Source of the DNA: Mesorhizobium sp.
Lineage (GTDB): Bacteria; Pseudomonadota; Alphaproteobacteria; Rhizobiales; Rhizobiaceae
DNA length: 44,944 nucleotides
Assembly (NCBI GenBank): GCA_004020545.1
Contig: SAQE01000026.1
Span: 1-44,944 of the forward strand
Reading direction: 5' to 3'
The stretch's first letter is position 1. The number at the start of each line of letters is the position of its first letter. Position numbers and translations under genes: made by a program. Shown piece after piece: positions 13,214-41,232 of this stretch. The notes below the pieces were generated by a model. The model saw nothing but the letters and a program-made list of their open reading frames with translations, was not told where the DNA came from and did not search any database.

Positions 13214-14308
13214 TCAGTCAGTGACAAGCTTGAGCTTGCCGGGGTCGAGAAGCAGCCCGACCGAGCGTGAATCCATGTTCCGGATGGGAGCCTGATATTC
13301 GGTGTGGTAGAGCAGGCCGATTGGCGAGTTGATCCGGTAGAGAACCCTGTCGCCCAAAAAGGCGCAGGATTCGATTTCTCCGACCAAGCCGTCATGGGCT
13401 TCTGCTTGAGTTAGACGAAGCGCCTCCGGGCGAACCACAAGCTTTGCCGGCCCGGCCAGGACCGCCGCATCCGAAACTGCTATCTCGGAGCCTGCAATCG
13501 TCGCGACCCATTTCCCGTCCCTGGACTGGCGCGCTTCGCACTCTAGTAGGTTGGCTTCTCCGATAAAGCTCGCGACGAAGGAAGACCGGGGGTGTTCGTA
13601 GAGCCCGGCCGCTGTTCCCCGCTGCGCGACGCGACCCGATTGCATCACGACCATCGCGTCGGAGACCGCCATGGCCTCCTCCTGGTCGTGGGTAACGTAG
13701 ACCGTCGTGACGCCCAAGCGCTGCTGCAGGGAACGTATCTCGTCGCGAACCAGGCGTCGGAGCTTTGCATCGAGGTTCGACAGAGGCTCGTCCAGCAATA
13801 GAACTTCCGGCTCCAGGACGACAGCGCGGGCCACGGCGACTCGCTGCTGTTGCCCGCCGGACAGTTCGCTGGGGAGCCGAGCCCCATAGCCGGCGAGGCC
13901 GACCATTTCCAACGCCTGCTCTGCCTTTAACCTCGCTTCAGTCTTGCGTATCCCCGACATCAGAAGGCCATAGGAGACGTTCTCGATCACGCTCATATGG
14001 GGAAACAAGGCGTACGACTGGAAAACCATGGCGACGTTGCGATACGTCGCGGGCAGCATCGATACGTCACGACCGCCGATCACGATTCGGCCGCGCGTCG
14101 GCAGTTCCAGCCCTGCGATCATGCGCAATGTGGTCGTTTTTCCGCAGCCACTCGGTCCGAGCAGAGTGACCAGCGATCCCGGTTCGATGTCAAAGCTGAC
14201 ATCGTCCACGGCGCACACACTCCCGTAGACTTTGGACACGGCCTCGAACACCACGCGACCATGCTCGGCAAACACTGTCTTTGCAGTTACTCTCGCAGTT
14301 TGCAGCAT
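13214..14308 (-). CDS. ABC importer ATP-binding protein (FbpC/AfuC/PotA type)
   Basis: A 364-residue ATPase with every expected element: Walker A GPSGCGKTT at about residue 52, Q-loop MVFQSYALFPHM, signature LSGGQQQR, Walker B VLLLDEPLSNLD, and switch His in VYVTHDQEEAM. The C-terminal third is a TOBE-type regulatory domain (SFIGEANLLECEA, KLVVRPEALRL). It powers import through the double permease encoded just upstream (16591-14408), with about 100 bases between them. Substrate follows from the binding protein and is discussed there. The start at 14308 has AAAGGAGG upstream. Confidence 0.93.
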   Translation of the reverse strand: MLQTARVTAKTVFAEHGRVVFEAVSKVYGSVCAVDDVSFDIEPGSLVTLLGPSGCGKTTTLRMIAGLELPTRGRIVIGGRDVSMLPATYRNVAMVFQSYALFPHMSVIENVSYGLLMSGIRKTEARLKAEQALEMVGLAGYGARLPSELSGGQQQRVAVARAVVLEPEVLLLDEPLSNLDAKLRRLVRDEIRSLQQRLGVTTVYVTHDQEEAMAVSDAMVVMQSGRVAQRGTAAGLYEHPRSSFVASFIGEANLLECEARQSRDGKWVATIAGSEIAVSDAAVLAGPAKLVVRPEALRLTQAEAHDGLVGEIESCAFLGDRVLYRINSPIGLLYHTEYQAPIRNMDSRSVGLLLDPGKLKLVTD

Positions 14309-14407
14309 GAAAAAGTCCTCCTTTCATGACCCGCCGATGAGCGTCAGGCGGTCTTGTGCAACCATATGTTGCCGCCGCATGACGCCCGCTATCTTTGTCC
14401 AGCGCGC

Positions 14408-16591
14408 TCATGCCCGAACCGGAGCTGCCGCTATTTTGGCCAGGCGCTCGTGCCGTCTTAGGCGGCGGGTTCCGAAAGCGAGCTGAACGGCGATAACGAC
14501 CGCGAGCATGACGGCGATGAGAACATTGGCGTAGGCAATCGCCACGCCATAGTTTCCGTTCTCGACGAGACCGACGATGTAGGCTGTCGCCATGTTGTGG
14601 TCGGCGCTTACCAGGAAAATGATAGCGCTCACCGAGGTGATGGCGCGGATGAAGGAATAGGCGATGGCCGCCACAATGGCCGGACGCAGCAGCGGCAGCA
14701 CGATCTTGCGCAACGTCTGCCAACTGTCGGCGCCAAGCGTCAGCGAAGCTTCGTCCAGGCTGTGATCGATCTGCTTCATCGCAGCGATGCCGCCGCGAAC
14801 GCCGACAGGCATGTTACGGAACACGAAGCAGAGGACGAGGATGACGCCGGTCCCGGTAAGTTCGATCGGCGGGACGTTGAAAGCCAGGATGTAGCTCAAA
14901 CCGACCACAGTGCCGGGAACGGCAAAGCTTAGCATCGTCGCAAACTCGAAGGCGCTTTTTCCGACGAATTGCTGGCGGACCAGAAGCCAAGCCGTCAACA
15001 GCCCGAGGGCGGCTGTCAAAGGCGCTGCAATCAGCGAAATGCTGAGAGTTGTCGCGAGCGAGCCCCACCCCGAGCCGGTCCAGATCAGCTTGCCGTCCGA
15101 CCAGCCAATCCCGAAAGCTTCGCGATAGTGGTCGAGCGTGAAGGCGTGGTCGAGACCCCACAGTTTCACGAAGCTGCCGTAGAGGATCATGCCGTAGACA
15201 ACCACCGTCAACGCAAGCCAGGGAAGCGTGAGGCAATGGACGGTCAAGGCATGGGCGCTGGACAATGGCGTGTGTGCGCCATTGTCTCCCTTGCCTGTAA
15301 TGGTCGCGTAGTTTTTTCGCCCAACCCAGCGGCGCTGGAGCAAGAACGCGCCCAGAGTGAACAGGAGCAAGATGATGGCGAGCACGGCCGCGCGCGCCGG
15401 ATTTGCTTGGGCGCCGACCACTGCGAAGTATATCTCGGTGGAAAGAAAGCCGCGCGCTCCGCCAAGGACGAGTGGGTTGCCGAAATCGGCAAGGCTTTCG
15501 ATGAAACCCAGTAGGAAAGCGTTTGCGAGTCCGGGCCGGAACAGCGGCAGCGATATCGTGCGCATGGTGGCTGAAAGATCTGCCCGCAAGGTCTGAGCCG
15601 CCTCTTCGAGCGACGGACTGACCCCCTCGACAACACCGATCAAAACCAGGAAGGCAATCGGTGTGAATGCAAGCGTTTGTGTCAGCCAAACGCCCCAAAA
15701 ACCGTAAAGCCAGCGCCCGGCTTCGATACCCGCCAATTGCGACACCCACGTCGTTACCGCACCGGCACGCCCGAAAAGCAGGATAAGCGCGAGGCCCACC
15801 ACAAAAGGCGGCGTGATGATCGGCAAGACAGTGAGGGCGCGAAGTAGTCTTTTCGCCGGAAAGTTGGTGCGGGTCATCAAAAGCGCGAAAGCCAACCCAA
15901 ACAGTGTGGTGCTGCTTGCCGTCATCACCCCAAGGAGAAGTGAGTTGATCGCCACGCCGCAACTGCGCCCGCCAGACAGGCACGCAAGACCCCAGATATC
16001 TCTTCCGGTCGCTGTGGTGAGAAATGAAGTGATCGAACCACGCCCTCCCGAGGGAGCGAAGGCTTGAACCAGGACGTGCAAAATCGGGTAGAAAACAAAT
16101 AAGCCGACAAGCGCCAGAACAAGGCCGATTGAGGCGATGGTAAAGGCGTCCCGGTTGCCCAAGCCTAACTTCGACCAGACGATGGCCACACAAACGAACA
16201 GGCCCGCACAGGTGATCATCGCCCCGTAGCCGAGCGCGGTGGAATTGACGTCGGCCAGAAATTCGAGTCCGGTCCAGCGTTCCACGAACGGCGGCGCGAC
16301 AATTGTCAGCAGGGCCGCACCCAACCCGGCCAGGAGCAATCGCTCCCGGCCTTGCAGGAAGCGCATATCAAAGGCCGACAGCAGCACCAGAGCCAGGGAC
16401 AGGAAAGGCAACGCTAGCAAAAGCCGGCCGTGAAAAAGCAGGTGAAGAATGCCGGGGGCGCCGGCTTCGGACAGCAAACCGCCGGTTTCGATCCAATCCG
16501 GCTCGAACAGGCCGTACTCGACACCAAACCAGGGAAAGAGGCAGAACCCCGCAAGGCCGAGTGCCGCAGAAATGGCGAGGGCGCGTTGCAT
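14408..16591 (-). CDS. ABC importer permease with two fused transmembrane domains (FbpB/AfuB type)
   Basis: 727 residues, about twice a single permease, with two BPD_transp_1 domains. Each carries its EAA loop: EEAAQTLRADLSATMRTISL (about residue 335) and DEASLTLGADSWQTLRKIVL (about residue 625). The N-terminal 170 residues add four hydrophobic helices before the first domain, giving roughly 14-16 membrane spans. The fused architecture is typical of ferric-iron and hexose-phosphate importers of this class. It lies 120 bases after the binding-protein gene on the same strand. A GC-rich spacer separates it from the ATPase gene. Confidence 0.92.
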   Translation of the reverse strand: MQRALAISAALGLAGFCLFPWFGVEYGLFEPDWIETGGLLSEAGAPGILHLLFHGRLLLALPFLSLALVLLSAFDMRFLQGRERLLLAGLGAALLTIVAPPFVERWTGLEFLADVNSTALGYGAMITCAGLFVCVAIVWSKLGLGNRDAFTIASIGLVLALVGLFVFYPILHVLVQAFAPSGGRGSITSFLTTATGRDIWGLACLSGGRSCGVAINSLLLGVMTASSTTLFGLAFALLMTRTNFPAKRLLRALTVLPIITPPFVVGLALILLFGRAGAVTTWVSQLAGIEAGRWLYGFWGVWLTQTLAFTPIAFLVLIGVVEGVSPSLEEAAQTLRADLSATMRTISLPLFRPGLANAFLLGFIESLADFGNPLVLGGARGFLSTEIYFAVVGAQANPARAAVLAIILLLFTLGAFLLQRRWVGRKNYATITGKGDNGAHTPLSSAHALTVHCLTLPWLALTVVVYGMILYGSFVKLWGLDHAFTLDHYREAFGIGWSDGKLIWTGSGWGSLATTLSISLIAAPLTAALGLLTAWLLVRQQFVGKSAFEFATMLSFAVPGTVVGLSYILAFNVPPIELTGTGVILVLCFVFRNMPVGVRGGIAAMKQIDHSLDEASLTLGADSWQTLRKIVLPLLRPAIVAAIAYSFIRAITSVSAIIFLVSADHNMATAYIVGLVENGNYGVAIAYANVLIAVMLAVVIAVQLAFGTRRLRRHERLAKIAAAPVRA

Positions 16592-16710
16592 GACGTGCTC
16601 CCTTCTTGGCGCGCGGACGACGTCCGACGCCTGGTCTTCGGTTGAAGTCGGCAGTTAGGCAGGTCCTGACCCGGCCTGAGCCTAACTACGGACCTACTGG
16701 CTTCCTCAAG

Positions 16711-17733
16711 CTACCTGGCGGCCTTGATTTCGCTGTCGAACCGCGACAGCAGCCGGGCCCGCACATCGGCAGAGCCGTAGGTGGCGAAGTCATAGTCGAC
16801 AAGCTTGATCTTGGTGATGTCCGGCGCTCCCGGCGGAACGGAAGCCTTGCCATTCGAGGGCACTTGGTTTTGTCCGGCCTCGGCTCCCGTCGCCTGACCC
16901 TCCGCGCTGAGGGCATAATCGACGAACAGCTTGGCGTACTCCAAATTTCGGGCTCCCTTGATGATGCTGACGGCGCCAATCTCGTAGCCGGTTCCCTCGC
17001 AAGGAGCGACGATCTCCAGAGGGAAACCGGCCTGTTTTTGGGTCACCGCATCATGCATGAAGGAGACGCCGACCAAGGTTTCGCCGCGAGCGGCCGCCTT
17101 GACTGGGGCTGAACCCGACTTCGTGTAGTTGTTAACATTGCGGTCGAGCTCGCCAAGGTATTTGAAGGCCTCGTCTTCGCCGAAGATTTGGACCAGCGTG
17201 GCCAGCACCGTATAGGCTGTTCCGGAAGAGTTCGGATTGGCGATCTGTATTTCACCTTGATAGGCTTGGTTGGCGAGATCCTTCCAGCATTTGGGCGCAG
17301 GAAGATTCTTCTTCTGCAGGATTTGCTTATTGTAGGCGAGGCCAAGCGCACCGGCATAGATTCCGGCCGCGCGGCCACCAGATATCTCGAAGAAATTTTG
17401 TGCCCAAGGCAGCAAATCGGGCTTGTTGACTGAGGTGTATGGCTCCAACAGCCCTTCGGATGCAGCCTGCAACTGCGGGTCGCCTGTGCCACCCCACCAA
17501 ACGTCGACTTTGGGGTTTTCCTTCTCGGCACGGACTTGGGCGAGGATCTCGCCGGAACTCTTGCGAACCATCGACACGTCGATGTTCGTCTTGCGCTCAA
17601 ATGCCTTCTCGAATGCGGTGCACCAGGCTTCATCCGCGCCGCAAAGGACGTTGAGCCTGCCGCCTGCCTGCGCGGCCGGGACTGACGCCAGCAATGCCGC
17701 GAAAGCGATCCCGGTGAGCATCCCAATCTTCAT
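16711..17733 (-). CDS. Periplasmic binding protein, FbpA/AfuA class (substrate probably not iron)
   Basis: Residues 1-23 are a signal peptide ending AAQAGG. The mature protein has the class fold: RLNVLCGADEAWC, VDVWWGGTGDPQLQA, GGRAAGIYAGALGLAYNK, NPNSSGTAYTVLATL, and ALSAEGQA near the end. Iron-binding members coordinate Fe(III) with adjacent tyrosines; no YY pair exists anywhere in this sequence, and the region is NNYTKSGSAPVKA. AfuA-like members bind hexose phosphates, and the SIS-domain regulator nearby fits a sugar-phosphate ligand. It is first in the minus-strand operon and divergent from the two-component pair. Confidence 0.88.
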   Translation of the reverse strand: MKIGMLTGIAFAALLASVPAAQAGGRLNVLCGADEAWCTAFEKAFERKTNIDVSMVRKSSGEILAQVRAEKENPKVDVWWGGTGDPQLQAASEGLLEPYTSVNKPDLLPWAQNFFEISGGRAAGIYAGALGLAYNKQILQKKNLPAPKCWKDLANQAYQGEIQIANPNSSGTAYTVLATLVQIFGEDEAFKYLGELDRNVNNYTKSGSAPVKAAARGETLVGVSFMHDAVTQKQAGFPLEIVAPCEGTGYEIGAVSIIKGARNLEYAKLFVDYALSAEGQATGAEAGQNQVPSNGKASVPPGAPDITKIKLVDYDFATYGSADVRARLLSRFDSEIKAAR

Positions 17734-17827: not shown

Positions 17828-17955
17828 GCCTTTCATGCCCCCGCTCCATCCGTTTTCAAAGATGGCAATTGTTACATTTGTGACGAAGGCGGTCATTAAG
17901 CTCCGTTTTGAAATCGCAGCGCGCGACTGTATGTTGGTACCAGGAGGAGTTGCTG

Positions 17956-18696
17956 TTGGAGAATACCAAGATCCTGATCGTGGAGGACGATCCGGAGATG
18001 TCTGAACTGATCTCCGACCTCGTGTTCTCCGAGGGTTGGGTGCCGATCGCCGTTACATCGGCGGAGGAGGCTTGGCGGACGCTGGCGCAACAGCGCGTTC
18101 ATATCGCTCTGATCGACCATAATTTGCCGGGACTGTCTGGACGCGCTTTCGCGCAGCGTCTGCGCCAGGAACAGAACATCGGCATTTTGTTGGTGACGGC
18201 ATCTGGCAGCGCTGCCGACCGTGTGCTGGGCCTCGAGACGGCCGCCGACGACTATGTCGTAAAACCATTCGAGCCGATGGAACTAGCGGCTCGCATCAAG
18301 GCCGTTCTGCGCCGGTCGACGGGACGTTTGAAGCCGGAGCCAAGCGGTCCTTCACGAGAAGAGGCAGAACCGAGACTGCGAATCGGCAACTGGCAGATCG
18401 ATTTCAAGCAGCGGCGCGCAGTATGCCTGGATGATCCCGCCGCCACGCTGACGAACTCGGAGTTCGCGCTCCTGGAGGTTCTCGCCGAAGCACCGGGCGA
18501 AGCCGTCGATCGCGTTCGCATACTCAATCGGCTGGGTGCGGATGACGATCGCTTTGTCGATCGCAATGTCGACGTGCTGGTGCTGCGGTTGCGCCGCAAG
18601 ATCGAGCTCAATCCTTATTTGCCGAGGCACATCAAGACACGGCGGGGCAAGGGCTATGTTCTGGTGGTGGATCCTGCGAGCGAGGCTGCGGGTTGA
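17956..18696 (+). CDS. OmpR/PhoB-type response regulator, TTG start
   Basis: The receiver domain opens ENTKILIVEDDPEMSELISD, with phospho-acceptor Asp54 in ALIDHNLPGLSG and the conserved Lys in DYVVKPFEP. The C-terminal winged helix (about residues 140-240) contains LTNSEFALLEVLAEAPGEAV and NVDVLVLRLRRKIE, then HIKTRRGKGYVLV. GGAGGAG six bases before a TTG at 17956 sets the start; the upstream TTG at 17908 lacks such a site. The stop overlaps the kinase start (TTGA). Likely controls the divergent transporter. Confidence 0.9.
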   Translation: MENTKILIVEDDPEMSELISDLVFSEGWVPIAVTSAEEAWRTLAQQRVHIALIDHNLPGLSGRAFAQRLRQEQNIGILLVTASGSAADRVLGLETAADDYVVKPFEPMELAARIKAVLRRSTGRLKPEPSGPSREEAEPRLRIGNWQIDFKQRRAVCLDDPAATLTNSEFALLEVLAEAPGEAVDRVRILNRLGADDDRFVDRNVDVLVLRLRRKIELNPYLPRHIKTRRGKGYVLVVDPASEAAG

Positions 18697-20915: not shown

Positions 20916-20987
20916 ATGTTTGCGGTGGGTGTTTGGGCTTGGTTGCTTGAGGATAATCGAGGGAGGCTGCGATGCTCGAAAAGGTGA
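20916..20987 (+). other. Possible short upstream ORF before the giant gene
   Basis: ATG 20916 is preceded by GGGGAGAGAGG and opens a 23-codon frame (MFAVGVWAWLLEDN...) that overlaps the first five codons of the next gene out of frame. The ribosome binding site is strong, so it could be a leader peptide modulating the large gene. It may equally be chance. Confidence 0.25.
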
Positions 20988-23900
20988 TGTGGAAACCGCC
21001 CGTGCCTCCTGCGAAGGATGTTTCGGGGGATGGGCGGCAGTTCACCTCGCTTGCGTCGACGGCGAGCCAGAGCAAAGCGCAAGCTGATGGGATTGCGCGC
21101 TCGCTGGCGGCAGGCAAGGGCATCGACCAAATTGTCAAGGAGCACCGCGGCTGGACGCGCGAGCAGGTACTCGCCCAGTTGAGGGCGGCAGGTTACGAAG
21201 TGAAGGTGACGGAGCCGCAAGCGGGCGAGACGCGGGTGACGCAGGTGCGCGACCCGAAGAACGGCAAGACGGTCACCGAGTATTCCGATTTCCAGCATGG
21301 CACCTACTACACCGCGGTGAAGGCACCGGGAGGTGAGGAGGTGTCGACGCCGGTGCGCGACGGCCTGGGGCGCAAGGTGACCAGCCATCGTGACGCGTCA
21401 ACGGGCGCGATCACGACGCGTTATGAAGACGACCTCAATCTGTCTGACGGAAGGACTGTCGAGACGACGCGGCTCGCGGACGGCACGATGGTGACGAAGA
21501 CCACACAGCGTGGCGGCGCCACCGGGACGGAGGTGACAGCCCCCGACGGGCAGCGGACGAAGCTCGTGGGCGACCAGCAGCCGACACGTGAGGGGATGGA
21601 GCCGATCCTCGAGGGCCTTGCCCGAGGCAAAAGTATCGACCAAATTGTCAAGGAGCACCCCGGTTGGACGCGCGAGCAGGTGGCCGCCCAGTTGAGGGCG
21701 GCAGGTTACGAAGTGAAGGTGACGGAGCCGCAAGCAGGCGAGACGCGGGTGACGCAAGTGCGCGACCCGAAGAACGGCAAGACGGTCACCGAGTATTCGG
21801 ATTTCCAGCATGGCACCTATTACACCGCGGTGAAGGCACCGGGGGGTGAGGAGGTGTCGACGCCGGTGCGTGACGGCCTGGGGCGCAAGGTGACCAGCCA
21901 TCGTGCCCCGTCAACGGGCGCGATCACGACGCGTTATGAAGACGACCTCAATCTGTCTGGCGGAACGACTGTCGAGACGACGCGGCTCGCGGACGGCACG
22001 ATGGTGACGAAGACCACACAGCGTAATGGCGCCACCGGGACGGTGGTGACAACCCCCGACGGGCAGCGGACGAAGCTGGCGCAGGATCAGAAGCCGACAC
22101 GTGAGGGGGCGCAGCCGATCCTGAAGAAGATTGCCGCTGGCAAGACGATCGACGAGATCGTCAAGGAGCACCCTGGCTGGACGCGCGAGCAGGTGCTCGC
22201 CCAGTTGAGGGCCGCCGGCTACGAGGTGAAGGAGACGACGCCCACGTCAAACGGCACTTCCGGCACGACGCAAGTGCGCGATCCGCACACGGGCAAGGTG
22301 GTGGCAAGCTACTCGGGCAACGGTCCCGACGGGCCGTACACTTCGCAGCTTGTCAACGGAGATGGCGATACCATCACGGTTACTCGGGATTCCCAGGGTA
22401 AAACCACGCGCAAGGTGGTCGAGTCGAACGGACGGCAGACGACGACCACCACGCAGGAGGTGGACGGCAAGACAAAGAAGACCGTCAAGGTGACGTTCAA
22501 CGGCTATACGTTGACAACGGGTCCTGACGGCAAGCTCGCGCTGACCGACAGCGAGGGTAACGAAGTGAAGATCAAGCCGGGCGCGATGCTGGAAGGGTTG
22601 GCCCGGACCCTCTTGGCCGCCAATCCCAACAGCAGCGATCCTGCCGAGCGCAAGGAAGGGGAGATCGTCAAGACGTTCATCGAGGGCGTCTTTGCCGGCG
22701 AGCGGCTGCCGGACCTGATCGCTGAGGCGCGAGGTCTGGGCGAAGAGACGCAGCGCATGCTGGCAAAATATGGCGACAGTCATGTAGCGCAGCCGATCAG
22801 GGACAAGGACAAGAACATCATCGATCCGATCGGGTTGCCACCGGCGGGCAACGCGCCCTCGGGCGGCAAATGGGTACCGGTGAAGATCCAGGGCCAGTGG
22901 AAATGGGTAGACCCCAAGGTGGCGCAGGGGATGGCGGCGGAGAACGTGGCGCTGTCACGGGTTGCGGAGACCCGCGCCAAAGTGCATCGCAGCCAGGCAC
23001 AGTTCGACGCCCTCGCTCTTGATCCGGCCTACAAGGGCGCGCTTGCCGATGCACGCAGGACGATCAACAAGGCGCTGGCGCCCTACGGACTGCAATGGAC
23101 CCCCCCAAAGCCGAAAGGTACTTTGGAGGAGGCGCGGCAGAGATTGGCCGGCACCGAGACGATGCTGAAAAACGCCAGCGGCGCGCGCAGCGAGTACGAA
23201 CAGGCGGCACGCATCCTCAATAACGCCATCACTCGGTTGAACTCCCTCTTGGTGCCGCTGGTTACCGCGCCCGTGAAAGGGCCTCAAGTGCGCGCTGGGG
23301 GTGTCAACCACGCGTTGCAGGATGCGCAGGACGAAGAGGCGCGCACGAAGGCAGTCAGCCTGTTCTCGGAGGTCGGCCTGCACATGAGCAGGGGCGACAA
23401 ACTCTCGCTCGACTATTTGGTCGGCCTTGGCGAACAGAACCTGGCGGCGAGCAAGGGAACGCCGCAGTACAAAAAGCTCGAAGCAGCGATGGCCGACCTC
23501 AAGCAGATGCAGACAGCGGCGGGCCAGCAGTTGGAGCTGGCAGAGGCCTACCACAACTTCTACCAGGCCCACGGCGATGCCTCGGCGCTGCGGGTTCTCG
23601 GCCAAAAACTTCTTGCCGAGTACAACAGCAAGAACCAGTTCCTGTTCGAACCCAACAAGAAGCACAGCACCTATGGCGGCAAGTATCTGGGCAAGTTCAC
23701 GGGCCAGGAGATCGAGGTCCGGGACGGCCAGGCCTGGGTGGTCAACCACTTCGAGGAGGGCACGACCGAACAACAGCTGACCTATGCGCCTGACGCCAAG
23801 AATGTGCGCGGCGAGTATCGGGATCGGGCCCTCAACAAGGAATGGCAGACAGCGCTAAAGCCCAATCCTTCCGTGTGCCAGAATGATCCGCTCCAGGCCG

Positions 23901-26900
23901 AACTGCAGGCGGGCAAGAATCTCAACACGGTGCTGAAACAGCAGATCGACGGCAAGATCAAGCTTCTCGACGGCACCATCCGCGACTTGCAGAACCGTTA
24001 TGACGGTGCCCTGAAGGAGCACGGTCCGGGCAGCACGGAAGCGCCGGCGGGAATGCTGCCAAAGGGGACGCAGCCGGTCGAGATCGATGTCGGCGGACAC
24101 AAGATCAAGGTCGCGCCGGAAGTCGTTTCCCAATATGAGAAGGGCGGGCTCGAGGCATTTGCAAAGGGCGGCAAGCCGGTCTGGATCGAGATTGAGCGCG
24201 ACGACGGCAGCCGCGGCACCGATGGCCGATGGGTGGACCCAGAACTGGCGGTCTTGCGGCTGCGGCTGAGCGTAGCGCAAACGCAGCGTCAGGGCGTAAG
24301 CGACCTTCGTAGCGAGGTGGAAGGTTTCAGCGCCTGGTACACGTTGCGCCAGCAAGAGCCGGCCCCGCTGGTCGGAACCGACCCTGGACTGGACAAGGCC
24401 TCTCTCGACCATCACCAACAACTGACGCTCGACGCCATCTACCAGCCGCAGTACCAGGCCATGCTGCGCTCCGCGCAAAACGACAATGGCAGCGACTTCG
24501 AGTTCCGCCGTGTGGAGGGCTCGACGCTGGAAGCGACCGTCTCGCGCATGCTCGGCCTCGGCGGCAGTTCCGAGGGACGCAAAGCGCTGAAGGAGGCGAC
24601 ACAGGAGATCCGTGGGATCGGTGACAAGGTGGATGTGCGCGTTGTGCCGCTCTTCCATGTCGACGGGACCGGGGGCTCGCAGCAGATCGCCCTGCTTGCC
24701 GTCAAGGGTGGCGACGGCAAGACTTGGTACATCGATGCCGCCGGCATGAAGTTCGAGAGCCTGAAGGACTTCCAGGACAACAACCGGCAGTTCGGCGAGA
24801 ACGGCAAGCTGGTGGTGCCTGCCGGACTGGAGATGAAGGCAGGCGCCGACGGCAAGATTGCGCTCGACGTGGTCAAGGCGCGCAACGTGTCGGTCCAGGA
24901 AAAGATCATTGATCCGGTAGTCGGCCTTGTCGGCACCGTTGCCACGGTCGCGTCCTTTTCGGGAGTTCTTGCTCCCGTCGCGGCCCCTGTGGCACTGGCC
25001 AGCGGCGCCTATCTCGGCGGCCGCACCGCCTATATGCAGACGCAGTATCTTACCCATGGCGGAGAATGGGGCGACAGCGAGTCGCTGATGAACATGGGGA
25101 TGATGGCAACCGTTGCCCTGCCGGTGGGATCGAGCACGCTGCGCACCATCGGCATGGCGGGAAAGCCGCTCGCCACCGGAGCGCGCATGTCGCTTTGGAG
25201 TGCCTCGCGCGCCAGCATTGGCGCGGTCAGGGCCGACAGCGAACTCGCCACTGCCGCCAAAGCCTACATGCGCTCCCCTACCAAGCTCAACCGCCTCGCC
25301 CGCGGCATGGACTGGAGCGCGATCGGCATCGGCGCCCCGCTGATGGCGGCCTCAGCCCACAATCTGTTCCTCTATGGCGACCAGATGTCCGGCCTGCAGC
25401 TCGCCGATGCGCTGACCGGCCTTGGCGTGGGCGCGATTGGCACCGGCATGGGCGTGCGCAACCTCAGAGCCACGAAGCCACAAACGCAGTCCAGCGCAAT
25501 GCCGCGCTCGGGCACGATCGAACTCGTCGATGAGACCGGTCGAACGATCACCGCCCGCCATCTCGGCCCGCCGCCGAAGAGTTCCGACGACATCCTTCTG
25601 CCCGAACCGGATGGAACCCAGCCACGCGGCGACGATCCACGCCACCAGTCCAAGACCCACATCCTCGTGCGCGACCCCGATACCGGCGAGGCCGTTGTCC
25701 TCCCCTATGTGCGCGGCGCGTCCTCCGAACACACACCGAACCCAGCAGGTGAGCCTGACCCGTCCACCAACCCCGCGGGCGAGACCAATCCAAAGCAGAA
25801 GCAGCCCGAGCAACCGGCGCCGAAAGCGTCCTCCTCCAAACCGGCTGAGACGTCTCCGACGGAGACAAAGGGGCCTCCAGCTCTCAATGTCAAACGCGCC
25901 GCCGCCTACATACTGGCGGCCAGGGTACTGGCGGCAGCCTTCGGCCATCTCACTGGCATCACCACCATCTACAACGCCATGAGCGGACAGGGAGCAAGCA
26001 CCGCTGCCTACTACCGCTCGGCGCTTTCGAAACTTGCCTGGTACACCCATAACCACGGAATGATCGATGTCTTCGAACTCGCCGCCAAAGGTGAGGTCGA
26101 CAAAGCCATGGCCCGCCTCAACAAAATCGTCGACCGAGCCCAGAAAAAAGGCGCGGCGCCGTTGAATGAGGAAGAGACCGAAGATCTGCGAGCCCTGGTG
26201 CAGCGTGTCGGCAACCATGGCGCGGCATACCGCGCTGCCCTGGAAACGCTCGATCCAGCGATGCGGGATACATTGCCCGCTATCAGGATCCGCGACCTTC
26301 CGCTGCCGGAAGAGGTCATCCGGAACTGGCTGCCTGAGAATCTGGAATCGCTGCCGGAGATCGACAGGATTCTCACGGCAATGAGCGAGGAACCGAGCGG
26401 GGAGTATTCCGGGAAAAAACCGGCGGAGATCCTGGCCGATCTGTCGCGCAAATTCGACCTTCTGGCGGATATCGACGGCGAAGGGCCAATACGCAATCGT
26501 CTTCTTGCCACCAAAGAAGCCCGCGAAGCCTATCGGGCGCTGTATGGGGCATTGAAGGAAGCCCTTCCGAGCGGATCGGACCGGCAACGGATCGATCACA
26601 AGGCAGCCGAGAAGAAACCGGGTAGCTCAATGGCCCCCGACACTTGGCGCGGATATCTGTTCAAACTCGGTTCCTTCGGCGGCGCCTTCAACGTTCTCCT
26701 CGCCTGGGGGAGCAAGGGAATGCCTTCCCATGGCGGCTCGCTCCTGCACTCGTTTGTCGGTTGGGGCGGCTACCTGGCCGACCCAGCCGGCGTTGTGCCG
26801 GCAACCATCGTTCAATGGAAATATCTCAAGGCGCTTCGCGAGCTGTCCGACTACAAGGCCGACCATCCTTATCCGCGCACTCCGGAACAGGAAGAGCAGC

Positions 26901-27658
26901 TGGCTATTTTGGAGGCGCGCCGCAAGCGTCTCAACACCTTGGCAGATTACACCAGCATCGCCAGCGGCATCCGCAATATTCTCGTCGGCGCCCAATATTT
27001 GATGGGCGGCAACTATCCTCTCGCGCTCGGATCGTTCCTTCAGGCCGGGAGCAGCTTCGGATGGGTGCTGGTCCAACAGACGCCAAAATCGTTGAAGATC
27101 GCGCCTGGCACCAAGCAGGCCATTCGCTACAGCTCGATCTCATTGGGGATCGTGGTTCCGACCGCAATCATGCTGTGGAAGATCTTGGCCGACGAAGAAC
27201 AGAAAAAGACGGGTCCCAGCATGTACGGGTTGGCAACGGAGGGCTACAGGGACCTCAGCCAAGCCGTCGGGGCCTGGGGCAAGGCGCTGGGACTCGACGA
27301 GCTTCTCGGCTACCAACCTTCTGACCTCGCCTTCGCCAAGGCGATAGGGCAGATGGCCAACGTGCCTTTCGACCCGTCCTTGATGCCGGGCCAGAACGGC
27401 TATCCCGATCTGCGCAGCATAGCCGTTGCGGACCCCGGCGCAGACGACCCGACCTGGCCGTTCGGCATTGAAGGACGAGGCAATCCAAGACTCGAGCGCG
27501 AAGGGTTCGCTCCGGTTCTTGCCCAGGAAGGTGACACGATTTCACGCATCGCGCGGGCTTATGCAGCGGATGTTGCCTCGACGGTTATGCTCAACATGGA
27601 CCATATCGCTGATCCGAGTTTGATCTTTCCCGGAGACAGAATCTATCTCCCTGCATGA
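20972..27658 (+). CDS. Giant repetitive protein (2,228 aa) with C-terminal LysM domain
   Basis: Start at ATG 20972 with GAGGGAGG before it. There is no Sec signal peptide. Residues 51-500 hold 171-residue tandem repeats, each opening with a helix pair (IDQIVKEHPGWTREQVLAQL) followed by beta-rich, RHS-like text (PDGQRTKL, RLADGTMVTKTTQR). Residues 500-1300 are helical and polar. About 1170-1490 resembles DUF4781-type sequence from memory. Hydrophobic segments lie near 1317-1355, 1643-1670 and 1895-2120, and the linker 1570-1640 is Pro/Ser/Glu-rich. Residues 2180-2228 form a LysM domain (LAQEGDTISRIARAYAADV, ending PGDRIYLP). Only one or two Cys occur. It may be a surface or effector protein; no secretion genes lie nearby. 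Confidence 0.85.
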   Translation: MLEKVMWKPPVPPAKDVSGDGRQFTSLASTASQSKAQADGIARSLAAGKGIDQIVKEHRGWTREQVLAQLRAAGYEVKVTEPQAGETRVTQVRDPKNGKTVTEYSDFQHGTYYTAVKAPGGEEVSTPVRDGLGRKVTSHRDASTGAITTRYEDDLNLSDGRTVETTRLADGTMVTKTTQRGGATGTEVTAPDGQRTKLVGDQQPTREGMEPILEGLARGKSIDQIVKEHPGWTREQVAAQLRAAGYEVKVTEPQAGETRVTQVRDPKNGKTVTEYSDFQHGTYYTAVKAPGGEEVSTPVRDGLGRKVTSHRAPSTGAITTRYEDDLNLSGGTTVETTRLADGTMVTKTTQRNGATGTVVTTPDGQRTKLAQDQKPTREGAQPILKKIAAGKTIDEIVKEHPGWTREQVLAQLRAAGYEVKETTPTSNGTSGTTQVRDPHTGKVVASYSGNGPDGPYTSQLVNGDGDTITVTRDSQGKTTRKVVESNGRQTTTTTQEVDGKTKKTVKVTFNGYTLTTGPDGKLALTDSEGNEVKIKPGAMLEGLARTLLAANPNSSDPAERKEGEIVKTFIEGVFAGERLPDLIAEARGLGEETQRMLAKYGDSHVAQPIRDKDKNIIDPIGLPPAGNAPSGGKWVPVKIQGQWKWVDPKVAQGMAAENVALSRVAETRAKVHRSQAQFDALALDPAYKGALADARRTINKALAPYGLQWTPPKPKGTLEEARQRLAGTETMLKNASGARSEYEQAARILNNAITRLNSLLVPLVTAPVKGPQVRAGGVNHALQDAQDEEARTKAVSLFSEVGLHMSRGDKLSLDYLVGLGEQNLAASKGTPQYKKLEAAMADLKQMQTAAGQQLELAEAYHNFYQAHGDASALRVLGQKLLAEYNSKNQFLFEPNKKHSTYGGKYLGKFTGQEIEVRDGQAWVVNHFEEGTTEQQLTYAPDAKNVRGEYRDRALNKEWQTALKPNPSVCQNDPLQAELQAGKNLNTVLKQQIDGKIKLLDGTIRDLQNRYDGALKEHGPGSTEAPAGMLPKGTQPVEIDVGGHKIKVAPEVVSQYEKGGLEAFAKGGKPVWIEIERDDGSRGTDGRWVDPELAVLRLRLSVAQTQRQGVSDLRSEVEGFSAWYTLRQQEPAPLVGTDPGLDKASLDHHQQLTLDAIYQPQYQAMLRSAQNDNGSDFEFRRVEGSTLEATVSRMLGLGGSSEGRKALKEATQEIRGIGDKVDVRVVPLFHVDGTGGSQQIALLAVKGGDGKTWYIDAAGMKFESLKDFQDNNRQFGENGKLVVPAGLEMKAGADGKIALDVVKARNVSVQEKIIDPVVGLVGTVATVASFSGVLAPVAAPVALASGAYLGGRTAYMQTQYLTHGGEWGDSESLMNMGMMATVALPVGSSTLRTIGMAGKPLATGARMSLWSASRASIGAVRADSELATAAKAYMRSPTKLNRLARGMDWSAIGIGAPLMAASAHNLFLYGDQMSGLQLADALTGLGVGAIGTGMGVRNLRATKPQTQSSAMPRSGTIELVDETGRTITARHLGPPPKSSDDILLPEPDGTQPRGDDPRHQSKTHILVRDPDTGEAVVLPYVRGASSEHTPNPAGEPDPSTNPAGETNPKQKQPEQPAPKASSSKPAETSPTETKGPPALNVKRAAAYILAARVLAAAFGHLTGITTIYNAMSGQGASTAAYYRSALSKLAWYTHNHGMIDVFELAAKGEVDKAMARLNKIVDRAQKKGAAPLNEEETEDLRALVQRVGNHGAAYRAALETLDPAMRDTLPAIRIRDLPLPEEVIRNWLPENLESLPEIDRILTAMSEEPSGEYSGKKPAEILADLSRKFDLLADIDGEGPIRNRLLATKEAREAYRALYGALKEALPSGSDRQRIDHKAAEKKPGSSMAPDTWRGYLFKLGSFGGAFNVLLAWGSKGMPSHGGSLLHSFVGWGGYLADPAGVVPATIVQWKYLKALRELSDYKADHPYPRTPEQEEQLAILEARRKRLNTLADYTSIASGIRNILVGAQYLMGGNYPLALGSFLQAGSSFGWVLVQQTPKSLKIAPGTKQAIRYSSISLGIVVPTAIMLWKILADEEQKKTGPSMYGLATEGYRDLSQAVGAWGKALGLDELLGYQPSDLAFAKAIGQMANVPFDPSLMPGQNGYPDLRSIAVADPGADDPTWPFGIEGRGNPRLEREGFAPVLAQEGDTISRIARAYAADVASTVMLNMDHIADPSLIFPGDRIYLPA
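21122..21634 (+). repeat. Tandem 513-bp repeat, copy 1
   Basis: First copy of an in-frame 171-codon repeat in the giant gene, beginning at ATCGACCAAATTGTCAAGGA. Copies 1 and 2 differ at a small number of positions over their whole length, including silent sites, so the duplication is recent or kept uniform by recombination. Confidence 0.9.
21635..22147 (+). repeat. Tandem 513-bp repeat, copy 2
   Basis: Second copy, exactly 513 bases after the first, with the same reading frame. Differences include GTGGCCGCC for GTACTCGCC in the helix segment and GCCCCG for GACGCG near the end. Confidence 0.9.
22148..22500 (+). repeat. Third, diverged repeat copy
   Basis: Begins exactly 513 bases after copy 2 (ATCGACGAGATCGTCAAGGA). 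The helical opening (IDEIVKEHPGWTREQVLAQL) is conserved. The following beta-rich part has drifted (TTPTSNGTSGTTQVRDPHTG) but keeps VRDP and TG-K-V. The unit fades by about 22500. Confidence 0.75.
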
Positions 27659-33499: not shown

Positions 33500-33640
33500 T
33501 GTCCGGCAACCGGTTCCTCTGCCTCTCAACACGCCTCCAATGGAGGCGAGGACAGCCGATGCGTTGCCGGAAGGGAATGGATCTTGGCAGTATGAGCCGA
33601 AATGGAATGGCTTTCGTTGCCTCGCCTTCAAGGCGGCCGG
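33500..33640 (+). pseudogene. ligD: Fragment of ATP-dependent DNA ligase around motif I
   Basis: The frame reads PLPLNTPPMEARTADALPEG then WQYEPKWNGFRCLAFKA. This is the start of the adenylation domain; EPKWDGFR normally carries the ligase nucleotidyl Lys. The Lys is kept but the following Asp is Asn. Coding character ends within about 15 codons, where unrelated sequence begins. It could be the missing N-terminal half of one of the C-terminal ligase remnants at 39.8 or 43.7 kb. Confidence 0.7.
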
Positions 33641-33740
33641 ACCAGGCGCCGCGCCAATGCGCATTCGAACAAATCGACGAAACCGCGATCAAAGCGCCCT
33701 CGCCCATGCGGCGGTGATTGCGTCGGCAGTGATCCCGGAA

Positions 33741-34952
33741 TTAAGCCTTGAACGCGAACAGGTCCGCATCCGTATCTTCTCCGCCCTTGATCGACGCCGA
33801 GACGACCTCAGAAGCGATCTGTGAAAAGAGGATGCCATTGCCGCCATAGCCCATCACCGCATGTATGCGAGGATGGTCGGGTAATGCACCGATGATCGGC
33901 AGCCCGGTGCCTATCGCGCCGAACGATCCGCTCCAGGCGAACTCCGCCTTGGTGTCGAGCAACGGGAAAATCCGCTTGAGCTTGTTCGAGAGCTGCGCTG
34001 CCTTTTTGTCTGTTAGTGCGTTGCGGCGCTCTTCATCAGTGAAATCCTCGTCCTCGCCGCCGCAAATCACACGCCCATCGGCCGTCGCACGGACATAGAG
34101 ATACGGGTCGGAGGCTTCCCAGATCATAGCAGCGCCTGGCCAAATCTTTGCTGGTTGTTGCCGGGTCGCGATCGCCCATGTCGAAATGACTTTGTGGCTG
34201 ACGGCCGGCACGACATCGAGCAGCTCATAACCGGTCGTTAGAATGAGATGGCGGGCTGTGATTGTGGGCCCCTGGCGCGTGACTACGACTACGCCAAGCC
34301 GATTGTCCTCGATCGCCATCGCCTCGGCTGGAGCGTACAAGCGCGCCTTTTTGTTGAGCGCGGCCAGCAGCAGACCGGCAGTAAGCTTTCGCGGATCAAG
34401 CGCCAGATTGTCGTGGCTGAGAATGGCGCCGCCACGATCAATGCCGAATTCATCCCGCAACCTTGCACGGATTAGAAACGATGCGCCGATACCGGCTCGC
34501 CGACGTGCCTCAGCTTCCTTGCGCAGGTCCATTGGACCGAGCGTAGTGCCAGCCAGGTAAAGTGACTGGGTGCTCACCTGGCTGCAGCGGATGCAGAGTT
34601 CCGCTATCCGCCCTTCAAGGTTGATCACAGCAAGCCGCGAACGCCGCCATGCCTGCTGGGCAGCAGCGCCGCCGATCATCTTCGACAGCTTCGTCAGCGG
34701 CTGATCGATTTCGAACTGTACCAATGCAGTTGTCGCGGCCGTCGATCCTTGCAGAGGCCCACGCCTGTCGATGCAGATGACGGAAAGCGCATCACGCGTC
34801 AGCGCTTCGGCCATCATAGCGCCGCTGATCCCCATGCCGACGATCAGCACGTCGGATTTCACGTCGCGGGCTAGGCGGCCCATGGGCACGGACGGCGATC
34901 GGTAGGCAGACCAGACAGGAGTTCCGCTTCTAAGATCGAGTTTGCGCTGCAT
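33741..34952 (-). CDS. FAD-dependent oxidoreductase (DadA-like amine/amino-acid oxidase)
   Basis: 403 residues. The dinucleotide-binding site SDVLIVGMGISGAMMAEAL lies at about residues 33-51, followed by an acidic strand end (CIDRRGPLQGSTAATTA). The substrate domain spans about 90-330, and the C-terminal flavin contact is GYGGNGILFSQIASEV. The overall layout is that of the DAO superfamily, which oxidises amines or D-amino acids. The substrate cannot be read from sequence. No operon partner: both neighbours are remnants. The start at 34952 is the only good Met (MQRKLDLRSGTPVW). Confidence 0.88.
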   Translation of the reverse strand: MQRKLDLRSGTPVWSAYRSPSVPMGRLARDVKSDVLIVGMGISGAMMAEALTRDALSVICIDRRGPLQGSTAATTALVQFEIDQPLTKLSKMIGGAAAQQAWRRSRLAVINLEGRIAELCIRCSQVSTQSLYLAGTTLGPMDLRKEAEARRRAGIGASFLIRARLRDEFGIDRGGAILSHDNLALDPRKLTAGLLLAALNKKARLYAPAEAMAIEDNRLGVVVVTRQGPTITARHLILTTGYELLDVVPAVSHKVISTWAIATRQQPAKIWPGAAMIWEASDPYLYVRATADGRVICGGEDEDFTDEERRNALTDKKAAQLSNKLKRIFPLLDTKAEFAWSGSFGAIGTGLPIIGALPDHPRIHAVMGYGGNGILFSQIASEVVSASIKGGEDTDADLFAFKA

Positions 34953-37218: not shown

Positions 37219-37960
37219 TCAGCGAAGAGATGCCGATTTCCGGCTAGCCTTAGGCTGCTGTTTGATGCCCTCTTTGGCAAGGCTCTTGCGAAGCATCGAT
37301 GCGAGATCGACAACGTTCTCCTTCGGCTTGGGCGCCGGCTTCGGAGGCTTCTTGCCCTTGCGCTCGGCATCGATCATCGCAATCAACGTCGAATTTCGTC
37401 ACCTTTTTGTCGATCAGGAGTTCCACGATCTCAAGGAGATCCTTGTCGTATCCGGCGCTTTTCAGATCGTCGAAGACGCTGCGTTCCGAGATCATTTCAT
37501 TGTGGCTACGAAGTTCGGTCAACAGCATTCCTTTCCCGAAAGGCTGGATCCCGACCTCGCGGCCGCGCTGTAGAGCACCACGGAAAAGGCTTCGACCGCG
37601 GCGCCGTCGGCGGGATAACGGGTTTCTCAAGATAGCGGGTGTCGATTTCGTCGAGCGCCACGAATTCCTCGACTTCCAGCTTATGCGCCGAGGTCAGCTT
37701 CAGCTTCTTGATTTCGTCGGGCTCGATCTCGATGAAGTCGCCCTTCTCAACCTCGCAGCCTTTAATCTGATCTTCCGAATCGACGACATCGCCGGTCTCT
37801 TCGTCAACATATGCGCTCTTCACCGGGAGCCGGTCTTCCCGGTTGAGAATCTTGAAGTGGATCTTCGAGGCTTCGCTGGTTGCACCAACCAGCTTCACGC
37901 CGCACGACACCGATCCTACCTTCAGGAATCCCTTCCAAACCGTAGCGCTGCAATGGCTAT
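37219..37960 (-). pseudogene. ku: Decayed ku gene
   Basis: Pieces in two frames align with the intact Ku at 40408-41232: VWKGFLKVGSVSCGVKLVGA, IEPDEIKKLKLTSAHKLEVE, then after a shift VGIQPFGKGMLLTELRSHNE and NVVDLASMLRKSLAKEG. There is a short deletion after RYLEKP, about 50 missing bases that covered LREAMKRKHVAAR, and about 30 missing near KKVTKFD. The start codon is ATA-like. It is on the opposite strand to the intact copy, 3 kb away. Confidence 0.85.
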
Positions 37961-38198
37961 TCCTCGTGCTTGCAACCAAAGGCGTCGGTGGCCTTTGCCC
38001 CGATCGCGGGCGGACGGCTCGTCCGCCGATTTCTTCAGCTACAGCAGTCAGCGCTCGGGAGAGATTGAGCAGCTTTTTGGTGTTCGAACGACCGCGCACG
38101 CCGCTGGAGGATCCAGACGCACCTATTTCGTTCGGGGATGACTGCACCTTCGCTGACCAGAGCCGCGTCTGCGGCGGCGTCAGCGGGAAGCATGATCG

Positions 38199-40407: not shown

Positions 40408-41232
40408 ATGGCGGCCCCACGCGCGGTTTGGAAAGGTTTTCTGAAGGTCGGTTCGGTTTCTTGCGGCGTTAAGCTCGTAGGGGCGACCAGCGAGGCCGGA
40501 AAGGTCCATTTCAAGATCCTCAACCGGGAGGACGGTCTGCCGGTCAAGAGCGCCTACGTCGATGAAGAGACCGGCGATGTCGTCCCGTCGGAAGACCAGA
40601 TCAAAGGCTACGAGGCCGAAAAGGGCGACTTCATCGAAATCGAGCCCGACGAGGTCAAGAAGTTGAAGTTAACCTCGCAACACACGCTTGAGGTGAGCGA
40701 ATTCGTCGCCCTTGATGACATCGACACTCGCTATCTCGAAAAACCCTATTATGTCATTCCGGCCGACGGAGCTGCGGTCGAGGCCTTCACAGTGCTCCGT
40801 GAGGCAATGAAGAGGAAGCACGTCGCGGCCCGGTCTTGCGTCGTCCTCTACCAACGCGGTCGAGAAGTGGTCATCCAGCCCTTCGGAAAGGGAATGCTTC
40901 TGACCGAGCTGCGTACCCACAACGAGATGGTTTCCGAGAGCAGCGTTTTCGACAATCTGAAAAGCCCGAAATACGATGAGGATTTGCTCGAAATTGCCAG
41001 CCTTCTGATAGACAAGAAAGTGACCAAGTTCGATCCGTCGAAGTTTGAGGACACCTATGAAGACGCGCTGATTGCCATGATCGATGCCAAGCGCAAGGGC
41101 AAGAGGGCGCCAAAACCCGTGCCACAGCCAAAAGAGAACGTCGTCGATCTCGCTTCAGTGCTTCGCCAGAGCCTGGAGAAAGAAGGCATCAAGCGACAGC
41201 CCAAAGCAAAGGCCGGCCGCAAGTCGGCGTGA
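40408..41232 (+). CDS. ku: Bacterial Ku, non-homologous end joining DNA-end binding protein
   Basis: 274 residues with the complete bacterial Ku core: RAVWKGFLKVGSVSCGVKLV, HFKILNREDGLPVKSAYVDE, GYEAEKGDFIEIEPDEVKKL, the central LEKPYYVIPADGAAVEAFTV, and KGMLLTELRTHNEMV. The C-terminal 35 residues are Lys-rich, the part that usually contacts LigD and DNA. Ku homodimers encircle DNA ends and recruit LigD. No intact ligD is present here, only fragments, so the partner must be elsewhere. An EcfG-like promoter and a T-rich terminator flank the gene. Confidence 0.95.
   Translation: MAAPRAVWKGFLKVGSVSCGVKLVGATSEAGKVHFKILNREDGLPVKSAYVDEETGDVVPSEDQIKGYEAEKGDFIEIEPDEVKKLKLTSQHTLEVSEFVALDDIDTRYLEKPYYVIPADGAAVEAFTVLREAMKRKHVAARSCVVLYQRGREVVIQPFGKGMLLTELRTHNEMVSESSVFDNLKSPKYDEDLLEIASLLIDKKVTKFDPSKFEDTYEDALIAMIDAKRKGKRAPKPVPQPKENVVDLASVLRQSLEKEGIKRQPKAKAGRKSA

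What the first reader, a model, noticed from the sequence alone, without database searches (positions are those of the whole stretch)
20972..27658. 2,228-residue repeat-containing LysM protein of unknown role
A single gene takes 15 percent of the window. It joins RHS-like beta-rich tandem repeats, a long helical body, a region resembling DUF4781 from memory, several hydrophobic segments, and a C-terminal LysM domain, with no Sec signal. LysM suggests contact with peptidoglycan or chitin-type glycans. The absence of secretion genes nearby leaves its export unexplained. It may be an effector, a surface adhesin or a cell-wall-anchored toxin carrier.
Basis: partly seen in the sequence, partly recalled or inferred. 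Interest (0 to 1): 0.75.

Follow-up and report, generated by a model that had tools for sequence, protein, structure and literature searches.

The report
Giant secretion-system partner protein, unlinked copy
This very large protein belongs to a family of giant proteins that travel with one particular bacterial injection machine (a type III secretion system), so it is most likely cargo or a delivery part of such a machine, although this copy sits far from the machine's genes.

Summary
The 2,228-residue ORF is real: DUF4781 and LysM score over Pfam cut-offs, with three 171-residue repeats and a long helical body. Its export is no longer a blank. Of 119 Mesorhizobium-group genomes, 35 match; in 33 of these a relative (2,612-4,152 residues where unbroken) sits inside a type III secretion (T3SS) cluster between sctD/rpiR and lysR/ykuD/sctJ. 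The window's own genome has such a cluster with a 3,329-residue relative on another contig. The giant tracks one T3SS type: 34 of 34 genomes with that SctV match, against 1 of 33 with only other SctV types, a fragment. Genomes with only the giant-type T3SS lack recognised NolX or SseC translocators (0 of 11); 55 of 56 with other types have one. Phyllobacterium plasmids put T3SS, giant and homologues of the window's flanking two-component and transporter genes in one block. Best reading: an unlinked paralogue of a T3SS-dedicated, probably exported giant. That the giant is also the translocator is bolder. Secretion was not shown.

The parts
20972..27658 (+). gene of the 2,228-aa giant protein (P0001)
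   Evidence: open frame; homologues
20960..20966 (+). Shine-Dalgarno-like AGGGAGG five bases before the ATG
   Evidence: sequence read
21107..22242 (+). three tandem units of 171 aa (helix-turn-helix plus beta strands), as far as the DNA copies match
   Evidence: fold model; Pfam DUF433/PASTA
22640..24022 (+). long helical body, residues 557-1017
   Evidence: fold model
24386..24895 (+). best-predicted core of the second model, about residues 1139-1308, overlapping DUF4781
   Evidence: fold model; Pfam DUF4781 at residues 1250-1354
24917..24973 (+). first strong hydrophobic segment, residues 1316-1334
   Evidence: hydropathy; similar place in relatives
25505..25831 (+). about 110-aa module (1512-1620) that recurs in relatives, up to at least twice further downstream
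25868..27220 (+). C-terminal helical module, residues 1633-2083, shared with L008, G266 and Phyllobacterium giants
27119..27190 (+). second strong hydrophobic segment, residues 2050-2073
27524..27652 (+). LysM domain, residues 2185-2227
   Evidence: Pfam
17908..18696 (+). response regulator
   Evidence: Pfam; same neighbour in L008, L102, L107, L108
18693..20849 (+). sensor histidine kinase, ends 122 bases before the giant gene
   Evidence: Pfam
13214..17733 (-). ABC transporter ATPase, permease and substrate-binding protein, divergent from the two-component genes
   Evidence: 61-72% identity to annotated genes of L107
12210..13190 (-). RpiR-type regulator, 38% identical to the RpiR-type gene beside T3SS-embedded giants

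Best explanation
P0001 is an unlinked (orphan) paralogue of a family of giant proteins dedicated to one T3SS type of Hyphomicrobiales. Shown: family membership, the embedding of relatives in T3SS clusters, and the tracking with that T3SS type in the genus sample. Inferred: the giant is exported by that T3SS (in this strain, the one on contig C111). Its N-terminal repeats act as export or delivery module, its helical body and two hydrophobic segments engage a membrane, a variable region between the two segments carries a payload in some relatives, and LysM holds or guides the C-terminus at peptidoglycan. P0001 keeps the chassis, but no payload domain was recognised in it.
For: In 33 of 35 matching genomes (of 119) a giant is flanked by SctD and RpiR homologues on one side and LysR, YkuD, SctC-N and SctJ homologues on the other (in G101 the giant is split into two frames, in G080 a front piece is a separate frame). 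SctV, SctJ and SctT over NCBIfam cut-offs in L009; SctN the best match, under its equivalog cut-off. Tracking with T3SS type: 34 of 34 against 1 of 33. In the phylum sample DUF4781 occurs in 6 of 398 genomes, all 6 among the 28 with SctJ over cut-off, 4 of them within 16 kb of it. G266 and Phyllobacterium T1293 carry T3SS, giant, ABC transporter and two-component genes in one block; 628 likewise but with only the substrate-binding gene of the transporter found. In 628 a second protein beside the block shares about 190 N-terminal residues with the giant (53%) on a different body, as a portable leader would. Giants are poor in cysteine: median 0.9 per 1000 residues against 7.4 in 55 other genes. 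PMC12580581 (passage read) reports a HopBF1+DUF4781 protein inside T3SS clusters of B. cenocepacia.
Against: P0001 itself is not linked to T3SS genes. It is shorter in front: its residues 38-41 align to about residues 105-177 of relatives, so a leader of roughly 70-130 residues is missing or unlike. No secretion experiment or signal predictor was available. The ABC/two-component cassette is not special to giants: 35 plasmids carry the kinase, at most 2 of them (Phyllobacterium) with a giant match; the best of them (Roseateles, Shinella, Rhizobium and others) are 52-54% identical to the window's kinase, nearer than the T3SS-linked Phyllobacterium kinases at 45%; the one such cassette opened, in R. 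leguminosarum, shows no T3SS gene within 10 kb; G042 has the kinase but no giant match. T3SSs of P. zundukense and R. johnstonii, SctV 51-52% identical to L009, have no giant match. G578's DUF4781 giant is 585 kb from SctJ. Two more giants without T3SS flanks occur in G115. The association statistics are not corrected for shared ancestry.
Confidence: 0.6

Rival explanations
1. It is a polymorphic toxin-like T3SS effector: the giant is only a carrier, the variable middle is the active part, and P0001's C-terminal helical module (1633-2083) is an unrecognised toxin. (Overlaps in part with the best explanation.)
For: Enterotoxin_a (ADP-ribosyltransferase fold, recalled) in 6 of 31 family proteins scanned, Scabin-like in 4, DNA/RNA endonuclease in 2; nuclease also in the Bosea protein, D-glutamate-cyclase-like domain in L094. 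YezG-like immunity gene after the DUF4781 protein in L098 (2e-8) and weakly in Bosea (0.0013, under cut-off).
Against: No toxin domain recognised in P0001, and a toxin-type domain in only 1 of 8 variable middle segments scanned. A giant in each of 33 clusters is unlike a dispensable effector.
Confidence: 0.3
2. It is a non-exported scaffold or tether: LysM (and SH3 in relatives) holds the injectisome to peptidoglycan during assembly.
For: LysM in 24 of 31 and SH3_3 in 19 of 31 family proteins scanned; a YkuD (L,D-transpeptidase) homologue next to the LysR gene beside the giant, or at the end of the T3SS cluster; a giant in each of 33 clusters.
Against: Payload-type domains in some relatives, size variation of T3SS-embedded copies and a leader shared with a second protein fit export better.
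Confidence: 0.15
3. P0001 is a relic or re-purposed copy that no longer works with any T3SS and is run by the neighbouring two-component system.
For: Orphan position; long branch in the tree (0.55); shorter N-terminus; two further orphan giants in G115.
Against: 2,228 codons open with a good Shine-Dalgarno-like sequence; body 52-54% identical to T3SS-embedded giants; C-module also present in T3SS-linked Phyllobacterium giants.
Confidence: 0.25
4. It is a surface adhesin or cell-wall protein exported by another route.
For: LysM; beta-rich repeats.
Against: No hydrophobic N-terminus; relatives embedded in T3SS clusters. Other secretion systems of this genome were not searched for.
Confidence: 0.05

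Closest known systems
DUF4781 protein of Phyllobacterium sp. T1293 (WP_227988990.1) and sp. 628 (WP_188346307.1)
   Same: DUF4781 body (37-38% identical), C-module (26-28%), two hydrophobic segments, homologous two-component and transporter neighbours (in 628 only the substrate-binding gene of the transporter was found)
   Different: beside a T3SS; start differently; neither BLAST with P0001 (both) nor Pfam (T1293 only) showed a LysM domain at their end
T3SS-embedded giants of Mesorhizobium (e.g. L009 in Mesorhizobium sp. M1C.F.Ca.ET.210.01.1.1; L007 in the window's genome)
   Same: repeats, body, DUF4781 region, adaptor module, homologous C-terminal LysM end
   Different: L007 and L009 are about 1,100 aa longer, with a variable middle, and T3SS-linked; in the midpoint-rooted tree P0001 groups with one clade of them (98/95), not with its own genome's copy
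HopBF1+DUF4781 protein WP_321175898 in T3SS clusters 1-4 of B. cenocepacia
   Same: DUF4781 in a large T3SS-cluster protein (passage read, PMC12580581)
   Different: carries HopBF1 and SEC10/PgrA regions; not compared by sequence here
HrpK/HrpF-type and NolX translocators
   Same: large T3SS proteins; a 1,106-residue HrpK-like protein with two predicted membrane helices is described in a P. syringae T3SS (passage, PMC3574062)
   Different: no sequence likeness found: PF16937 not listed for P0001; two HrpK proteins do not match the giant profiles or loci
Polymorphic toxins
   Same: long repeat-rich carrier, swapped enzymatic domains, sometimes an immunity gene (passages, PMC3482391)
   Different: P0001 has no recognised toxin domain, and no immunity gene was recognised beside it

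Membership tests
T3SS-associated DUF4781 giant family (as defined here) | body plus DUF4781 region homologous to T3SS-embedded giants | tested here: met
   52-54% identity to the nearest over residues 497-1512 or more; Pfam DUF4781 over cut-off; tree
T3SS-associated DUF4781 giant family (as defined here) | gene linked to T3SS core genes | tested here: not met
   no T3SS core gene found on the 79.8-kb contig; in 33 of 35 matching genomes, the window's included, a copy is so linked
T3SS secreted substrate | T3SS-dependent secretion | not testable with these tools
   inferred only
T3SS translocator (HrpF/HrpK, NolX, SseC) | sequence match to a translocator family | tested here: not met
   PF16937, PF05819 and PF04888 are not among the 15 Pfam families listed for P0001 up to E 1
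T3SS translocator (HrpF/HrpK, NolX, SseC) | two hydrophobic segments in a secreted protein | tested here: inconclusive
   two strong segments in P0001; both in 10 of 12 giants examined; membrane insertion not shown
Polymorphic toxin | C-terminal toxin domain | tested here: not met
   none recognised in P0001
Polymorphic toxin | adjacent immunity gene | tested here: not met
   the next gene downstream is an MFS transporter
RHS/YD-repeat protein | RHS repeat HMM match | tested here: not met
   Pfam gives DUF433/PASTA; Foldseek RHS likeness weak
LysM protein | LysM HMM over cut-off | tested here: met
   25.4 bits against 20.9

The most novel reading that the evidence does not exclude
The giants are translocator and effector in one: the T3SS type that owns them has no separate recognised translocator because the giant does that job. 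Two recurrent hydrophobic segments bracket the variable region, so membrane insertion would itself place the payload loop in the target cell's cytosol. P0001 would be a second, payload-poor copy able to serve the same machine.
Probability: 0.2. Interest if true: 0.88.

Novelty: new variant of a known kind. Interest (0 to 1): 0.62.

Why it matters
It turns an orphan 'LysM giant' into a member of a T3SS-bound family and raises a testable question: how does a T3SS type without NolX or SseC proteins get cargo across the target membrane? If the giant does it, translocation and cargo are fused in one chain, which would change how T3SS parts and substrates are told apart. It also shows that the window's genome, which has a NodC match over cut-off, carries a second T3SS (SctV 86% to L009) unlike its NolX-bearing one (SctV 46%), with no function assigned here.

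Tried and rejected
Foldseek of residues 1029-2228 against PDB: no match better than E 0.16, so no fold is assigned to DUF4781. Foldseek of 1-1028 gave two hits under E 0.001 (an Elp123 complex and a microtubule chain) with TM under 0.1; taken as chance. A papain-like reading of DUF4781, made by eye, was dropped: Foldseek gives no support, and P0001's only cysteine is residue 969, outside the core. HrpK (PF16937) as a test of missing translocators failed in this genus: 0 of 119 over cut-off, NolX-bearing genomes included; NolX and SseC were used instead. LWXIA (NF012230) fits one member of each of A1 and A2, and is not listed for P0001. ABC/two-component genes as a specific mark of the giant: weakened, because the cassette exists without it and the best giant-less kinases are nearer. 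P0001 as a recent duplicate of the genome's own T3SS giant: not supported by the tree, which warns of long branches. SPC24 matches in PDB (E 0.6) taken as chance. Pfam on eight variable middles: six gave nothing, one repeats and SH3, one an ADP-ribosyltransferase-type domain with repeats and SH3. Antibacterial use of the T3SS was considered because of YezG-like genes; not pursued beyond one paper listing. A motif scan for the first repeat found it at residue 48 in P0001 and 119-145 in four relatives, at 363 in one and not at all in four, so the N-terminal comparison rests on BLAST.
Full report
What is there. The ORF 20972-27658 (+) encodes 2,228 residues, preceded by AGGGAGG. Pfam over cut-off: DUF433 (45 bits), DUF4781 (33), PASTA (27.3), LysM (25.4). 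Three repeat units are spaced 513 nt apart, two of them 95% identical over 300 nt. AlphaFold (residues 1-1028, mean pLDDT 79) shows helix-turn-helix plus beta-strand units and then long helices from 557 to 1017. Residues 1029-2228 fold poorly overall (pLDDT 63.7), best in a core at about 1139-1308. Two strong hydrophobic segments lie at 1316-1334 and 2050-2073; there is one cysteine in all. Foldseek gives no close PDB relative for 1029-2228. For 1-1028 it gives two hits under E 0.001 with TM under 0.1 (an Elp123 complex, a microtubule chain), taken as chance, and weak likeness to RHS, lectin and OspA-type beta structures.

Where its relatives live. The window lies on contig C107 of a 7.0-Mb, 188-contig genome. 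The genome has a NodC match over cut-off. A 3,329-residue relative lies on contig C111, flanked by genes 86% and 72% identical to SctV and SctD of L009 on one side, and by LysR, YkuD, SctC-N and SctJ homologues on the other; SctU, SctN, SctQ, SctR and SctT homologues lie just beyond. In L009, SctV, SctJ and SctT score over NCBIfam cut-offs; SctN is the best match but under its equivalog cut-off. In the genus, 35 of 119 genomes match P0001. In 33 of these 35 a giant has the same flanks, some homologues only partly covered (L007, L009, L010, L040-L067, L070, L071); in G101 (L071) the giant is split into two frames, and in G080 (L049) a front piece is separate. In the other two genomes (G103, G117) only fragments were seen. 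G115 has, besides its T3SS copy, two giants without T3SS flanks in the stretches fetched (L068, L069), so orphan copies occur elsewhere too.

Tracking. SctJ over cut-off occurs in 67 of 119 genomes, including all 35 that match P0001. Typed by SctV at E 1e-120, 34 genomes have the giant type (71-100% identical to L009; G074 and G117 partial) and all 34 match P0001; 33 have only other types (47% or less), and one of them (G103) has a giant fragment. In the phylum sample DUF4781 occurs in 6 of 398 genomes and SctJ over cut-off in 28 of 398; all 6 are among the 28, and 4 of the 6 have SctJ within 16 kb; in G578 it is 585 kb away, and in the window's genome on another contig. Hypergeometric chances are 8e-12 (genus) and 7e-8 (phylum), but shared ancestry makes these too small. 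In the family sample 6 of 151 genomes match, own included; G153, G203, G266 and G188 show T3SS homologues beside a match, G229 is marginal.

Missing translocators. NolX (PF05819) is in 54 of 119 genomes, all with another SctV type; SseC (PF04888) is in 5 of 119. Of 56 genomes with another type, 55 have one of the two (G010 has neither). Of 11 genomes with only the giant-type T3SS, none has either. That NolX and SseC families are translocators is recalled; Pfam names PF16937 a translocator. PF16937 finds nothing over cut-off in the genus and so does not test it. T3SSs of P. zundukense and R. johnstonii, SctV 51-52% identical to L009, have no giant match but hold a PF16937 protein; those proteins have no match in the giant-bearing loci searched. 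NCBIfam named no translocator among ten unassigned proteins of the T1293 cluster. PMC3574062 (passages) describes a 1,106-residue HrpK-like protein with two predicted membrane helices in a rhizobial-like T3SS of P. syringae, and says the second T3SS of NGR234 lacks such a gene, so absence of a recognised translocator is not unique to giant-type systems. Of 12 giants examined, 10 show both hydrophobic segments, one near the DUF4781 region and one towards the C-terminal end, although the distance between them runs from about 740 to 2,600 residues. This is why I keep a translocator-plus-cargo reading as the novel case. It is an inference from absence and position.

The window's own neighbourhood. 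Upstream lie a histidine kinase, a response regulator, a divergent ABC transporter and an RpiR-type regulator. Homologues of the kinase, response regulator and transporter adjoin a giant in L008 (93-95% identical; the giant is cut by the contig end and points the other way relative to the kinase) and in L102 (G266). In the Phyllobacterium sp. T1293 plasmid they adjoin a DUF4781 giant, with sctT to sctU following within 20 kb; in 628 likewise, but only the substrate-binding gene of the transporter was found. In G266, SctU, SctC, SctV, SctD, SctJ, SctN, the giant and the cassette lie in one stretch of about 34 kb. Against a special bond: the kinase is in 35 plasmids, of which at most the two Phyllobacterium ones have a giant match; the best of these giant-less kinases are 52-54% identical to the window's, nearer than the T3SS-linked Phyllobacterium ones at 45%; the cassette opened in R. 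leguminosarum WSM1325 has no T3SS gene within 10 kb; within the genus the kinase (E 1e-80) is in 3 of 119 genomes, two with an adjacent giant, one (G042) without any. P0001's body groups with 16 T3SS-embedded giants (98/95), not with its own genome's copy; the tree is midpoint-rooted and warns of long branches. Its C-module (1633-2083) matches only L008, L102 and the Phyllobacterium giants among those compared, at 35 bits or more.

Payloads. Of 31 proteins scanned at E 0.001 (P0001 included; several are DUF4781 or LysM proteins rather than giants), 6 match Enterotoxin_a, 4 Scabin-like, 2 Endonuclea_NS_2, 1 a D-glutamate-cyclase-like domain; LysM is in 24 and SH3_3 in 19. The Bosea DUF4781 protein ends in a nuclease domain. 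P0001 has none of the enzyme domains. A YezG-like immunity gene follows the DUF4781 protein in L098, and weakly in Bosea. In Phyllobacterium 628 a 1,194-residue protein shares about 190 N-terminal residues with the giant on another body.

What is known. Searches for DUF4781 (3 papers), LWXIA (3 papers, none relevant by title), Mesorhizobium T3SS with LysM, ADP-ribosyltransferase or Rhc-III, giant effector terms, T3SS with LysM, translocon and Phyllobacterium and a second T3SS in Mesorhizobium gave, in the listings and the passages I opened, one direct precedent: PMC12580581 (passage and outline). PMC3973906 (passages) groups rhizobial T3SSs as Rhc-I to III, with M. loti in Rhc-I; I did not place the giant-type system on that scheme. 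I found no paper on the Mesorhizobium giants in these searches of an open-licence library, which is incomplete; most listed papers were not opened.

Verdict. P0001 is a real and unusual protein, an unlinked member of a T3SS-bound giant family. Family membership is about as sure as sequence allows. Export by a T3SS is likely but not shown, and less sure for this copy because of its shorter N-terminus. Mechanism is open.

Noticed in passing
L098 8590-8961 and L109 33363-33758: A YezG-like immunity gene directly follows a T3SS-cluster DUF4781 protein (2e-8 in L098; 0.0013, under cut-off, in Bosea, whose protein ends in a nuclease domain). This hints at self-protection or antibacterial use of a T3SS.
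   Followed up: partly
L108 11183-14767: Phyllobacterium sp. 628 has a 1,194-aa protein next to the kinase that shares about 190 N-terminal residues with the giant (53%) but not its body.
   Followed up: partly
L075 6872-7732; L094: A D-glutamate cyclase gene follows SctT in the own-genome T3SS cluster, a homologue lies beside the giant in L094, and a D-glutamate-cyclase-like domain sits inside that giant; with YkuD and LysM this gives the locus a peptidoglycan theme.
   Followed up: no
window 37506-38147 and 40408-41232; L076 11922-12755; window 33540-33824 and 43689-44210: Several Ku-like genes and short LigD-like pieces on one contig; names are from memory, by eye, not from a family search.
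   Followed up: no
L107 (NZ_CP088275.1): The paper on strain T1293 (passages seen) puts the T3SS on plasmid pT1293c, while the record that holds it is titled pT1293a.
   Followed up: no
L067, L068, L069 (G115): One genome with three giants, two of them without T3SS genes in the stretches fetched, so orphan copies are not unique to the window.
   Followed up: partly
L071, L072, L073 (G101, G117, G103): Giants split or reduced to fragments; in the G117 stretch the LysR, YkuD and SctJ side of the T3SS cluster was not found either.
   Followed up: no
genus survey: Three T3SS groupings seem to coexist in the genus sample: one with NolX, one with SseC, one with the giant.
   Followed up: partly
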